A stretch of 64,000 nt of DNA from Clostridiales bacterium (lineage in GTDB: Bacteria > Bacillota > Clostridia > Lachnospirales > WQUN01), in contig JAITSQ010000035.1 of the NCBI GenBank assembly GCA_031287685.1, forward strand, positions 1 through 64,000, given 5' to 3'. Position 1 is the first letter of the stretch. Every line of letters starts with the position of its first letter. The notes beneath the pieces are model-generated. The model was not told the origin of the DNA. It did no database searches and saw only the letters and a program-made list of their open reading frames with translations. This document shows, piece by piece, positions 1,346-33,854 of the stretch. The position numbers were made by a program, and so were the translations under genes.

Positions 1346-3313
1346 ATGAAAAAATACACCAACGAAAGCATAACCTCCCTCAAAGGCGCGGACCGAGTCC
1401 GCAAACGCCCCTCCGTCATTTTCGGTTCGGACGGCATAGAGGGTTGCTGCCACTCTATTTTTGAGGTTTTATCAAACTCCATAGACGAGGCGCGGGAGGG
1501 CTTCGGCGATAAAATCGAGGTGACGCGCTTCGCCGATAATTCCGTTGAAATACGGGATTACGGGCGGGGGATTCCCGTTGAGTTCAACAAAAACGAAAAC
1601 CGAGACAACTGGGAGCTTATTTTCTGCGAGCTTTACGCCGGCGGCAAGTTTAACAACAACGCGGGGGACACCTATTCGTACAGCTTGGGCCTGAACGGCC
1701 TGGGCCTTTGCGCCACCCAATACAGCGCGGAATATATGAACGCGGAGATTATCTACGGCGGGAACCGGTTCTCCCTCCATTTTGAAAACGGGGAAAACAT
1801 AGGCGGGCTTAAGACCGAAAAGCTGCCGCCGGATTTTCCCCAGAAAAGCGGCACGGCCATAAAATGGCGGCCGGATTTGGCGGTCTTTACGGATATAGAG
1901 GCTCCGCTTTTGTATTATACCGAAACCCTGAAACGCCAGGCGATTGTCAACAAGGGTATGACTTTTATTTTGCGCGACGAGGAAAGCGGCGAAAGTTTCA
2001 CGTTTTTTTACGAAAACGGCATCAACGACTATATAGAGGAGCTGAACGCCGGGCTTAACCTAACGAAGCCCGTCAGCCTCTATAACGAGACCGCCGGGCG
2101 CGACCGGGAGGACAAGCCCGAATACAGGCTTAAATACGAAATCGCTTTCTGCTTTAATAACGAGGTAAACGTAATGGAGTATTACCACAACTCCAGCTTC
2201 CTTGAGCACGGCGGCTCGCCGGACAAGGCGGCCCGCTCGGCTTTTACCTCCGCCGTGGACGCGCTCATAAAAGGCCAGAATCTGTATAAAAAGGACGAAA
2301 AGCGGATAACTTTTCAAGACGTCGCGGACAGCCTGGTGCTTATATCAAACTCGTTCTCCACGGTCACGAGCTACGAGAACCAGACCAAGAAGTCCATAAC
2401 GAACAAGTTCATTCAGGATTCTATGACGGAGTTTCTGAAAAAGCAGCTTGAGGTTTATTTTATCGAGAATCAGCAGGAAGCGGAAAAAATAGCCGCGCAG
2501 ACGCTCATAAACAAGCGAAGCCGGGAGGATTCCGAAAAGACGCGCCTCTCCATACGCAAAAAGCTGACGGCGGGAGTGGACTTGTCAAACCGGGTGGAGA
2601 AATTTGTAAACTGCCGCGCGAAAGACCCGGCCAAGAAAGAGATTTACATAGTCGAGGGGGATTCGGCGCTCGGTTCCTGCAAAATGGGGCGCGACGCGGA
2701 GTTTCAGGCGATTATGCCCGTGCGCGGCAAAATCCTGAACTGCCTCAAGGCGGACTATAACAAGATTTTCGCCAGCGAAATAATTACGGACTTAATCCGC
2801 GTACTCGGCTGCGGCGTTGAAATAAAGAGCAAACACAAGGACTTGTCGTCGTTTGACCTCTCCCGCCTTAAGTGGAGCAAAATCATTATATGCACGGACG
2901 CGGACGTGGACGGCTTCCAGATACGCACGCTGATTCTGACAATGCTGTACCGCTTGACCCCGACGCTTATACGCGAAAGAAAGGTGTATATCGCGGAATC
3001 TCCGCTTTACGAAATCACCAGCGGCAAAAGCACGTACTTCGCCTACAGCGAGGCGGAAAAAGGGCAGATTTTAGGCCGGCTGACGCAAAAATACAAGATT
3101 CAGCGCTCAAAGGGCTTGGGCGAGAACGAGCCTGATATGATGTGGCGCACGACGATGAACCCCGCCACGAGGCGGCTTATTCTCGTAATGCCGGAGGAAG
3201 CCCGGAAAACGGCGGAGATGTTTGACATTCTGCTTGGCGAGAACCTGCGCGGGCGGAAGAATTTCATTGAGGAAAACGGGGCGAAGTATATTGATTTGAG
3301 CGAGGTGGGGTAA
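1346..3313 (+). CDS. Type II topoisomerase ATPase subunit (GyrB/ParE-like), divergent and unpaired
   Basis: 655 residues, the usual length of ParE or a short GyrB. The GHKL ATPase half shows NSIDEA (44-49, Mg/ATP Asn) and DYGRGIP (71-77). The glycine loop is GLNGLG near 115-120 instead of the usual GGLHGVG. The TOPRIM half has EGDSA near 437 (without the usual following GG) and DADVDG near 516, the acidic metal site; KGLGE appears near 588. These mark it as the B subunit that passes a DNA segment with an A subunit. No gyrA/parC follows: a strong terminator closes the gene. An AAGGAG site precedes the ATG. It is probably a clostridial topoisomerase IV-type or accessory B subunit rather than the housekeeping GyrB; which one cannot be decided here. 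Confidence 0.85.
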   Translation: MKKYTNESITSLKGADRVRKRPSVIFGSDGIEGCCHSIFEVLSNSIDEAREGFGDKIEVTRFADNSVEIRDYGRGIPVEFNKNENRDNWELIFCELYAGGKFNNNAGDTYSYSLGLNGLGLCATQYSAEYMNAEIIYGGNRFSLHFENGENIGGLKTEKLPPDFPQKSGTAIKWRPDLAVFTDIEAPLLYYTETLKRQAIVNKGMTFILRDEESGESFTFFYENGINDYIEELNAGLNLTKPVSLYNETAGRDREDKPEYRLKYEIAFCFNNEVNVMEYYHNSSFLEHGGSPDKAARSAFTSAVDALIKGQNLYKKDEKRITFQDVADSLVLISNSFSTVTSYENQTKKSITNKFIQDSMTEFLKKQLEVYFIENQQEAEKIAAQTLINKRSREDSEKTRLSIRKKLTAGVDLSNRVEKFVNCRAKDPAKKEIYIVEGDSALGSCKMGRDAEFQAIMPVRGKILNCLKADYNKIFASEIITDLIRVLGCGVEIKSKHKDLSSFDLSRLKWSKIIICTDADVDGFQIRTLILTMLYRLTPTLIRERKVYIAESPLYEITSGKSTYFAYSEAEKGQILGRLTQKYKIQRSKGLGENEPDMMWRTTMNPATRRLILVMPEEARKTAEMFDILLGENLRGRKNFIEENGAKYIDLSEVG

Positions 3314-3315
3314 AC

Positions 3316-3344
3316 GCAAAAGCCCCCCTCGCGGGGGCTTTTGC
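3316..3344 (+). terminator. Intrinsic terminator after the topoisomerase gene
   Basis: A 12-bp GC-rich stem, GCAAAAGCCCCC paired with GGGGGCTTTTGC, begins two bases after the stop codon. The arms contain A and T runs, so it could work in both directions. Confidence 0.8.
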
Positions 3345-3360
3345 GGGCTATACAGCGCTT

Positions 3361-3849
3361 TTACTTTTCAGGAACCGGCAATATACCGCCGTTTAGAATA
3401 AGAATCCCTTCGGCGAGGCATACCAAAAACAGCGCGGCGTAAATTATCAATACAGTGTCCACAACCTTAGCGCGCCAAGCCAGCCTGCTTATTATGTCCG
3501 TTTTCGTCTTATCTCGCATTTTTTGGTTGTATTCCTCGTTCACGCGTTTGGTTTCCGGGCTGATTCTGTATATAATATCGTCTCGCTTTTTGCCCATAAC
3601 ATGCAGCCGCACAGCTTCCATTTTCAGCAAAAAAGCCGCGCCTAGGCACACCAAACAGGAGAAAAACGGCGGCGCGCTCAGCAAAATCCTGTCCTGAATG
3701 TTGTTGCTGTAAATAAAAAACGGCAGCGACAAAATAGTAACTATAGCGAAAACCGTTTTATATATTATATCCCAAAACGCGGCGTGACGCCGCTCGCACT
3801 CGCTTGATAATATAGAGCATATCTCCATATCGTTGCCGCCGCTTTCCAT
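3361..3849 (-). CDS. Small three-helix membrane protein, unknown
   Basis: 162 residues with three likely membrane helices: about 28-47, 55-76 and 128-152. The first two form a hairpin and are followed by a charged stretch (KKRDDII to TKTDII, about 87-122), which should be cytoplasmic or coiled. The ATG at 3849 lies four bases after the radC stop, so the two genes look translationally coupled. An internal ATG 18 bases later (MEICSIL) is a possible alternative start. I do not recognise the family; the layout resembles small SLATT-like or RipA-like membrane proteins, but I see no diagnostic motif. Confidence 0.7.
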   Translation of the reverse strand: MESGGNDMEICSILSSECERRHAAFWDIIYKTVFAIVTILSLPFFIYSNNIQDRILLSAPPFFSCLVCLGAAFLLKMEAVRLHVMGKKRDDIIYRISPETKRVNEEYNQKMRDKTKTDIISRLAWRAKVVDTVLIIYAALFLVCLAEGILILNGGILPVPEK

Positions 3850-32112: not shown

Positions 32113-32457
32113 TTAGTCTATTTCCTCACCTGTGGATTTAGCTATTCTTTTTTTGGTTATTTTGCCGTCCGCGCCGGTTTCGAGCTTATAGCCGATTCTC
32201 GTGGGATTGCCCTTATGCAGGTACATAACGTTTGAAACGTGCAGGGGGGCTTCCTTTTTAATAATGCCGCCGTTCCCCGCGCCCTGGCGCGGCTTCGTGT
32301 GGCGGGAAACCATATTCACGGACTCCACCAGAACGCCGCCGGTTTTCCTGTTGACTTCAAGGACTTTCCCCCGGCGGCCTTTATCTTTTCCCGCGGTCAC
32401 AACTACGTTGTCGCCCTTTTTCAGCTTAATTTTAATGGGTTCTTTAAGTTTTTGCAC
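32113..32457 (-). CDS. rplX: 50S ribosomal protein uL24
   Basis: 114 residues from GTG 32457, which stands ten bases after AAGGAGG. The GTG at 32466 is only one base from that site and is rejected. The KOW motif (KKGDNVVVTAGKDKGRRGKVLEV, about 13-35) and GVLVESVNMVSRHTKP are typical. uL24 nucleates 50S assembly. Its ribosome-binding site lies inside the last codons of the inserted metallopeptidase gene, whose stop is five bases upstream. Translation of this essential protein is therefore physically tied to the insert. Confidence 0.95.
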   Translation of the reverse strand: MQKLKEPIKIKLKKGDNVVVTAGKDKGRRGKVLEVNRKTGGVLVESVNMVSRHTKPRQGAGNGGIIKKEAPLHVSNVMYLHKGNPTRIGYKLETGADGKITKKRIAKSTGEEID

Positions 32458-32462
32458 CAGCC

Positions 32463-33080
32463 TCACACCTCCTTGTTCAAAAATTTTCTCTTGTTTTCTT
32501 TATAGTTAGAATCCACCCGATCAATACTCGCCTTTATCGTTTCGTGGGAGGGCGCGTGCCTTTCCTTAAAATCCGGGGCGTTATACATTTCCGACAATCC
32601 CTCTATGTGCTTCTGGGCAAAATACGTGGCTTCGGTTTCCTTGCGGGGGCTGCCGCTCATTCTTTCCTCGAACTTAGTGTTGTCTCTCTTCAAGTCGTCC
32701 TTAGCCAAGTGCAAAACGATATGGCCAAGCTCATGACCTATAAGGATTCGCTTTGTGAGCAGCGGGTTTCTTTCGCCCTGGTCGTGGTCCTCGGCGGCGC
32801 TTTCAATTTCGTCGCAAAAAATAGTCGCGCCCGTCTCGTAGAGCATGATTTTCGCCTTGGGTTTGCGAGGGTTTTCCGCACTGACGCCCGCGTGGCGCTT
32901 CCTTGGCGAGCGGACGCTCTTTCTTACGAGAAACCGTCCGCCTTTCATTTTGAATTTTTCCCCCATATGGCTTTCGATAGCCACCGTAAGATGGTCTAAG
33001 ATACCGTCGCGGTTCTCCAGGTATTTAAGTTTTTTCAGCAGTTCCTCAATTTCTTCCGCGGTATATTCCCTCTCGTCCAA
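32463..33080 (-). CDS. ImmA/IrrE-like zinc metallopeptidase inserted in the ribosomal operon
   Basis: 205 residues from TTG 33080, with AAGGGGG seven bases upstream. The zinc-binding HELGH is at 116-120 in ILIGHELGHIVLHLA, and a likely third ligand is E150 in ETEATYFAQ, the EAxxFA pattern of ImmA/IrrE (COG2856) proteases. Residues 1-25 are a charged helix, and about 35-75 are basic. Family members cleave repressors (ImmR, DdrO) or act beside antitoxins, usually next to an HTH gene; no HTH is present here. Its neighbour is a 92-residue acidic protein. It separates rplN from rplX, which is not a normal gene position in any bacterium I know. The C-terminal codons contain the rplX ribosome-binding site. 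Confidence 0.85.
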   Translation of the reverse strand: MDEREYTAEEIEELLKKLKYLENRDGILDHLTVAIESHMGEKFKMKGGRFLVRKSVRSPRKRHAGVSAENPRKPKAKIMLYETGATIFCDEIESAAEDHDQGERNPLLTKRILIGHELGHIVLHLAKDDLKRDNTKFEERMSGSPRKETEATYFAQKHIEGLSEMYNAPDFKERHAPSHETIKASIDRVDSNYKENKRKFLNKEV

Positions 33081-33113
33081 AATGTATCCCCCTTGAGTTT
33101 TTAATTCACGAGT

Positions 33114-33392
33114 TTACCTCAGATGTTCTACGAGATTATCGGGGGTCATGAATCGCCAATCGCCCATTATAAACATTTGCTTCATGTCATAGTACTCGTC
33201 CTCGACAAATTCCTCGTATTCCGCGTCGCCCGGGGACGGCGGCACTTCGGAGTCAAACGCCGCCTTAACCCCCATTACCTCGTACAGGTAGTTTATCCTT
33301 TCGACTGTATCCCGAATGCCTTTATCGTCGAAATACTTGTCGATGTCCTTCTCTTCTGCGAAATCCCTGTAAACCATTATTTTCCTATCCAA
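33114..33392 (-). CDS. Small acidic protein paired with the inserted metallopeptidase, unknown
   Basis: 92 residues from TTG 33392, with AGGAGG eight bases upstream; ATG 33377 (MVYRDF) is an alternative. It is strongly acidic, roughly twice as many Asp and Glu as Lys and Arg, with an Asp/Glu/Tyr-rich patch EEFVEDEYYDM near 60-70. Helical segments are likely around 12-42. No signal peptide, membrane helix or HTH is seen, and no family is recognised. It is first in the insert, 93 bases after rplN and 33 before the peptidase. It could be the peptidase's substrate, inhibitor or partner; that is inference from pairing. Confidence 0.75.
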   Translation of the reverse strand: MDRKIMVYRDFAEEKDIDKYFDDKGIRDTVERINYLYEVMGVKAAFDSEVPPSPGDAEYEEFVEDEYYDMKQMFIMGDWRFMTPDNLVEHLR

Positions 33393-33485
33393 ATATAAAC
33401 CCTCCTAAGAATAATTCTCCCTATCAATCTATGTTTACTTTCAGATTATAGGTCAATGAACTTTGGCGGAAGATTCGCGCTGTCT
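33393..33485 (-). promoter_or_regulatory. AT-rich 93-base gap with promoter-like boxes ahead of the inserted pair
   Basis: Most gaps in this operon are under 40 bases; this one is 93 and visibly AT-richer. On the minus strand TTGACC (33456-33451) and a perfect TATAAT (33450-33445) lie side by side rather than 17 apart. TATAAT has a poor -35 at proper spacing (TCTTCC), and TTGACC has a poor -10 (CATAGA). A private promoter is possible but not convincing. Confidence 0.35.
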
Positions 33486-33854
33486 TTACAGCACTTCCGG
33501 AGCCAGCGACAGAATCTTAGTAAACTGCTTCTCCCTGAGTTCTCTTGCCACAGGGCCGAATATACGCGTTCCTCGCGGGGTTTTGTCGTCTTTTATGATA
33601 ACGGCGGCGTTTTCGTCGAAGCGCACGTAAGAACCGTCCGGGCGGCGAGCGCCTTTTTTCGTGCGGACGATAACAGCTTTCACCACGTCGCCTTTTTTAA
33701 CTATGCCGCCTGGGGTGGCGTCTTTAACCGCGGCGACGATTATATCGCCCACGTTGCCATAGCGGCGGGTGGAGCCGCCCATCACGCGGATGCACAAAAG
33801 CTCCTTCGCGCCGCTGTTATCGGCGGACACGAGCCTTGTTTCCTGCTGAACCAT
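33486..33854 (-). CDS. rplN: 50S ribosomal protein uL14
   Basis: 122 residues, the universal length. Conserved segments include [35 protein letters not shown] and the C-terminal [26 protein letters not shown]. uL14 forms bridges to 16S rRNA and is the docking site of RsfS silencing factor. GGAGG precedes the ATG. The next gene on this strand should be rplX, but a two-gene insert intervenes. Confidence 0.97.

What the first reader, a model, noticed from the sequence alone, without database searches (positions are those of the whole stretch)
32463..33485. Two-gene ImmA/IrrE-metallopeptidase module embedded inside the core ribosomal protein operon
Seen: between rplN (33486) and rplX (32457), normally neighbours, lie a 92-residue acidic protein and a 205-residue HELGH metallopeptidase, in the same direction, both with TTG starts, preceded by an unusually long AT-rich gap. 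The peptidase's last codons form the rplX ribosome-binding site and its stop is five bases from the rplX start. Known: ImmA/IrrE (COG2856) proteases switch genes by cleaving repressors and usually sit beside an HTH gene in mobile elements or TA-like pairs; no HTH is here. Inference: expression is locked to ribosome supply, so the protease may sense or act on ribosome state, or the acidic protein may be its inhibitor or substrate. TTG starts would keep both far below r-protein levels.
Basis: partly seen in the sequence, partly recalled or inferred. Interest (0 to 1): 0.85.

Follow-up and report, generated by a model that had tools for sequence, protein, structure and literature searches.

The report
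Protease gene pair inside ribosomal operon
A rare two-gene cassette, a small acidic protein followed by a zinc protease, sits between two ribosomal-protein genes that are otherwise always neighbours; it occupies that same slot in two related genera and occurs elsewhere as a free-standing pair, so it is a real module whose job is still untested.

Summary
Between rplN and rplX lie a 92-aa acidic protein and a 205-aa HELGH peptidase, on the same strand. It is not an assembly accident. A sister genus (G001) has the same pair in the same slot, while 28 of 30 family members checked, including the next-closest genus G004, have rplN and rplX 4-97 nt apart. The same pair, partner first, also stands alone between unrelated genes in three other genomes. 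In one of these (G011) a congener keeps the clean empty site. In 392 genomes of the order, the genomes with a convincing partner were exactly the five with this peptidase. The peptidase is a divergent M78 (IrrE-like) protein: 5 of 5 members match M78, although the window copy falls below Pfam's cutoff. It has its own N-terminal G-x-x-D-H motif, intact zinc ligands and no HTH partner. The partner has no known domain; its most conserved part is a C-terminal F-x-x-G-x-W-R. Best reading: a rare stand-alone protease/partner module, toxin-antitoxin-like or ImmA/ImmR-like in layout, that entered the spc operon before g1 and g2 split. It has been kept and ameliorated there. A functional link to ribosome state is untested. 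Structure prediction failed (pLDDT about 40).

The parts
33486..33854 (-). rplN (uL14), left flank of the insertion
   Evidence: 81-91% identical to family rplN; next to rplX in 28 of 30 family genomes
33393..33485 (-). 93-nt AT-rich leader of the pair (37% GC); contains an imperfect inverted repeat CCTATAATC..GATTGATAGG and an SD AGGAGG predicted to be partly paired
   Evidence: no promoter match in it; G001 has a 105-nt leader in the same place; RNA fold z only -1.7
33114..33392 (-). Partner gene: 92-aa acidic protein, TTG start, C-terminal F-x-x-G-x-W-R motif; candidate inhibitor (antitoxin-like) or substrate of the peptidase
   Evidence: no Pfam, NCBIfam or PHROG family
32463..33080 (-). 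Peptidase gene: 205-aa M78-like zinc protease, TTG start; H116-E117-L-G-H120, E148-T-E-A, N-terminal G26-I-L-D-H30; C-terminal tail reads into the rplX ribosome-binding site
   Evidence: invariant zinc ligands in 5 members; PF06114 hit in 5/5 members (window copy 19.9 bits, cutoff 22)
32113..32457 (-). rplX (uL24), right flank of the insertion

Best explanation
A compact two-gene protease/partner module. Gene 1 makes a small labile protein; gene 2 makes an M78 zinc protease. Proposed working (inferred): the partner docks on the protease through its conserved C-terminal F-x-x-G-x-W-R element and holds it inactive, or is itself the cleaved switch, as in toxin-antitoxin and ImmA/ImmR-type pairs; when partner supply falls, the protease is released to act on one or more cell proteins. 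The module moves or is lost as a unit without a transposase (shown for one site as present/absent between congeners). It entered the rplN-rplX junction before genera g1 and g2 split and was kept there as two intact genes. There it relies on spc-operon transcription, because no promoter was found in its leader. Shown: gene pair, linkage, one empty site, recurrence in the slot, intact zinc site. Inferred: inhibition or substrate relation, lability, target, and coupling of partner supply to r-protein transcription.
For: Same pair in the same slot in G001; slot empty in 28 of 30 family genomes, including G004, and in 79 named loci, mostly from other phyla and families, with a largest corrected gap of 39 nt. 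r-protein tree groups G000 with G001 (support 0.825) inside a 0.999 clade with G004. Partner profile hits above noise in 392 genomes of the order are exactly the five genomes with this peptidase: 5/5 linkage. Free copies in G011, G030 and G100, partner first, genes overlapping by 1 to about 35 nt. Clean empty site in congener G012: 16 nt against 1137 nt. Invariant G-D-H, HE-x-x-H and E-x-E-A residues despite about 28% identity. Invariant F, G, W, R in the partner. Host-like codon use.
Against: No test of toxicity, cleavage or binding. Structure models were too poor to judge an interface. The peptidase tree does not group G000 with G001 (support 64 or less at the relevant nodes), so two separate insertions, or very fast change after one, cannot be told apart. 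G001 is a 77% complete, 500-contig MAG whose contig begins with an inverted stretch.
Confidence: 0.5

Rival explanations
1. Passenger: a neutral or mildly selfish cassette that landed in the spc operon once and persists because clean deletion is rare; the ribosomal location has no functional meaning.
For: Free copies sit in unrelated intergenic sites; present/absent pattern between congeners; most family members lack it.
Against: Both ORFs intact with conserved catalytic residues in both slot copies although the peptidases are only about 28% identical; a neutral insert would be expected to decay over genus-level divergence (81% r-protein identity).
Confidence: 0.3
2. Domesticated ribosome-state switch: the pair has been recruited by r-protein operon regulation, the protease cutting an r-protein, ribosome factor or repressor when ribosome supply and demand are out of balance.
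For: Retained in the same slot in two genera; own SD for each gene instead of the overlaps seen in free copies; leader of similar length in both (93 and 105 nt).
Against: No ribosome-related domain; conserved motifs are shared with free copies; leader RNA folds are weak (z -1.7 and -2.1); no Rfam match.
Confidence: 0.12
3. Diverged ImmR/CapH-type switch: the partner is a DNA-binding repressor that the protease cleaves.
For: COG2856 proteases usually pair with an Xre repressor (PMC2701414); other M78 genes in this order mostly do; inverted repeats lie in some leaders (G030 p=0.01, G001 p=0.13, G000 not significant).
Against: No HTH or other DNA-binding family in any of five partners; partner strongly acidic in the window (pI 4.3).
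Confidence: 0.1
4. Assembly or binning artefact.
For: The window genome is a 37-contig draft; the G001 contig has an inverted start.
Against: Two genomes, two different sequences, same slot, contiguous into rplX-rplE-rpsN-rpsH; host-like codon use.
Confidence: 0.02

Closest known systems
ImmA/IrrE (COG2856, MEROPS M78) proteases: ImmA-ImmR, PprI-DdrO, CapP-CapH
   Same: HExxH zinc site plus E-x-E-A helix; two-gene operon with a small partner upstream; PF06114 and PADLOC capP profiles hit all five members
   Different: No HTH partner or HTH fusion; extra N-terminal G-x-x-D-H..A motif; partner is a new small acidic family; none of the HTH-paired M78 genes in the order share these features
Type II toxin-antitoxin pairs, including the proposed COG2856-Xre class (PMC2701414)
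   Same: Small gene first, larger enzyme second, overlapping genes in free copies, patchy distribution, compact unit without transposase
   Different: Toxicity and neutralisation untested; partner not recognisably DNA-binding; not found on plasmids or phages
[quoted passage not shown]
   Same: Small gene sets inserted into the conserved cluster in some lineages
   Different: The examples read there are metabolic genes between operons or nrdHEF in rpoBC; here a protease pair splits rplN from rplX inside spc

Membership tests
M78 / COG2856 peptidase (ImmA/IrrE) | HExxH zinc-binding helix and downstream Glu ligand | tested here: met
   H116, E117, H120, E148, E150, A151 invariant in five members
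M78 / COG2856 peptidase (ImmA/IrrE) | Reaches the Pfam PF06114 gathering score | tested here: inconclusive
   Window copy 19.9 bits against cutoff 22; 5/5 members match at E<1, best 5.7e-6
M78 / COG2856 peptidase (ImmA/IrrE) | HTH (Xre) partner or fused HTH domain | tested here: not met
   No HTH in the partner or peptidase; typical M78 genes in the order mostly do have an HTH gene upstream
Type II toxin-antitoxin system | Two-gene operon, small antitoxin gene first | tested here: met
   All complete copies: partner upstream, same strand
Type II toxin-antitoxin system | Strict linkage and patchy, mobile distribution | tested here: met
   5/5 linkage; empty site in a congener
Type II toxin-antitoxin system | Toxin harms the host and the antitoxin neutralises it | not testable with these tools
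   Needs expression experiments
CBASS CapP/CapH regulation | Pair sits at the head of a CBASS or defence operon | tested here: not met
   Window neighbours are r-proteins; free copies lie next to lacZ, dacA, selD, 5'-nucleotidase, yihY

The most novel reading that the evidence does not exclude
A mobile protease/inhibitor pair has been captured inside the spc operon so that inhibitor supply tracks r-protein transcription, turning a selfish module into a sensor of ribosome synthesis that is stably inherited in a clade.
Probability: 0.13. Interest if true: 0.85.

Novelty: new variant of a known kind. Interest (0 to 1): 0.55.

Why it matters
rplN-rplX is among the most conserved gene neighbourhoods in bacteria, so a protease pair kept there in two genera is a natural test of what such an operon tolerates and of how a toxin-antitoxin-like module behaves when its promoter is that of the ribosome. 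It also adds an M78 protease lineage with a new, non-HTH partner family, which bears on how widely IrrE-type proteases act beyond cutting repressors.

Tried and rejected
AlphaFold on the peptidase and on the partner-peptidase read-through (TAA read as Q) without alignment gave pLDDT 40 and 37, so no fold search was run. Viral-contig scans with four queries found no member; the single hit, L162, is an ordinary HTH-paired M78. Plasmid and phage searches were empty. Class and phylum surveys gave only generic M78. Genome contigs named no close relative; the nearest rplX are Lachnospiraceae/Anaerotignum MAGs at 58-59%, so the taxon is placed only as a Clostridia family near Lachnospirales. A shared leader RNA structure was rejected as unproven (z -0.8 to -3.3, and +0.7 for G100). 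Target-site duplication or terminal repeats at the G011 insertion: none seen.

Full report
Observation. On the minus strand the order is rpsQ, rplN, a 93-nt AT-rich leader, a 92-aa acidic protein, a 33-nt spacer, a 205-aa HELGH protein, and rplX. Both inserted genes start with TTG behind good Shine-Dalgarno sequences. The own genome (G000, 1.88 Mb, 97% complete) has no second copy of either.

Recurrence in the slot. In a search of the 38 genomes of the family, G001, the only genome of genus g2 in that set, has a peptidase homologue (28% identical) ending 27 nt upstream of rplX, preceded by the C-terminus of a partner ending DGDWRFSSIENMKIFEQL (window: MGDWRFMTPDNLVEHLR). The first 270 nt of that contig are the reverse complement of the rplN end, a 105-nt leader and a start MPNIENFKFDLKV. 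So the contig start is inverted relative to the rest, by assembly or by real inversion, but every piece expected for rplN-partner-peptidase-rplX is there. Of 30 family loci with both genes, only G000 and G001 carry an insert; the others have 4-97 nt between the aligned ends, including G004, whose rplN stop and rplX start are almost adjacent. In 79 loci from named genomes the largest corrected gap was 39 nt. A tree of rplX, rplE, rpsN, rpsH and rplN puts G000 with G001 (0.825) and G004 outside (0.999). One insertion before the g1/g2 split is therefore the simplest history. The peptidase sequences are too divergent to confirm this. Two shared traits of the slot copies support it weakly: the genes are spaced rather than overlapping, and both partners have a similar C-terminal extension after WR.

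The module elsewhere. A profile search of 295 genomes of the order and a partner-profile search of 392 found the same set of strong members: G000, G001, G011, G030 and G100. The last three are free pairs in unrelated neighbourhoods, partner first, with overlapping genes. In G011 the pair lies between dacA and a lacZ-like gene and is followed by a strong terminator-like hairpin (I2). In G012, of the same genus and about 81% identical around the site, these two genes are convergent with only 16 nt between the matching blocks. The unit thus comes or goes cleanly, and no repeats were seen at the ends. Samples of 391 class genomes and 398 phylum genomes had no further member; plasmids, phages and viral contigs had none. 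It is rare and, on present data, largely confined to this family.

What the proteins are. All five peptidases match M78 (PF06114), best E 5.7e-6, though the window copy is under the cutoff. The zinc ligands and E-x-E-A are invariant. An N-terminal G-x-x-D-H..A motif is invariant in this group and absent from the HTH-paired M78 proteins of the same order. The partner matches no Pfam, NCBIfam or PHROG family; Y67, F74, G77, W79 and R80 are invariant in five partners. No solved structure is related by sequence. Single-sequence AlphaFold models are unusable.

How it probably works. Gene order, strict linkage, overlap in free copies and patchy presence are those of a protease with a controlling partner. 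The literature on COG2856 describes proteases that cut an Xre-type repressor (PMC2701414; PMC10904395 for PprI-DdrO and CapP-CapH with single-stranded DNA as trigger). Here the partner is not recognisably DNA-binding, so an inhibitor or antitoxin-like partner, or a non-DNA-binding substrate, is more likely (inference). In the spc operon no promoter match was found in the leader, so transcription probably comes from the r-protein promoter (inference); partner supply would then fall when r-protein transcription is shut down. That coupling is a prediction, not a result.

Expression. Codon adaptation (0.66-0.68) and GC3 (0.62-0.63) are close to the r-proteins (0.67-0.76; 0.59-0.69), so the genes are ameliorated and not obviously set for low expression. 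The claim that TTG starts keep them far below r-protein levels is not supported.

Limits. The score reflects a real and unusual location of a new protease/partner variant, with an open mechanism.

Noticed in passing
L038 (G001:C202) 1-270: Contig start is the reverse complement of the rplN end plus the partner start, joined to the partner C-terminus at a stretch (GATTATGACGGCGTTATT) that reads sensibly as both genes: an inversion or hairpin misassembly at a possible chance inverted repeat.
   Followed up: partly
L015 (G012:C7:111267-111572) and G011:C51:1919-2224: A second, different two-gene unit: an 89-aa non-HTH protein overlapping by 4 nt an M78-like peptidase without the G-x-x-D-H motif; the partner is not clearly related to the window's (hhalign probability 0.9%).
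   Followed up: partly
L012 / L039 (G169:C160): An 84-aa protein ending TTQDWKI, overlapping a 363-aa open frame whose C-terminal part is an M78-like peptidase with DGYLDFE where this group has DGxLDHE; possibly a distant version of the same pair.
   Followed up: partly
L164 (G029:C1) about 2560-3700: The selD/5'-nucleotidase junction that holds the pair in G030 holds two other small genes, convergent to the flanks, in its congener G029; the junction may be an insertion hotspot.
   Followed up: no
window 33393-33485; L038 leader; L009 leader: Inverted repeats next to the partner's ribosome-binding site (CCTATAATC/GATTGATAGG; AATACTAT/ATAGTATT; CTTCCAATG/CATTGGAAG); only the G030 one is unlikely by chance (p=0.01). 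Possible operator or RNA switch.
   Followed up: partly
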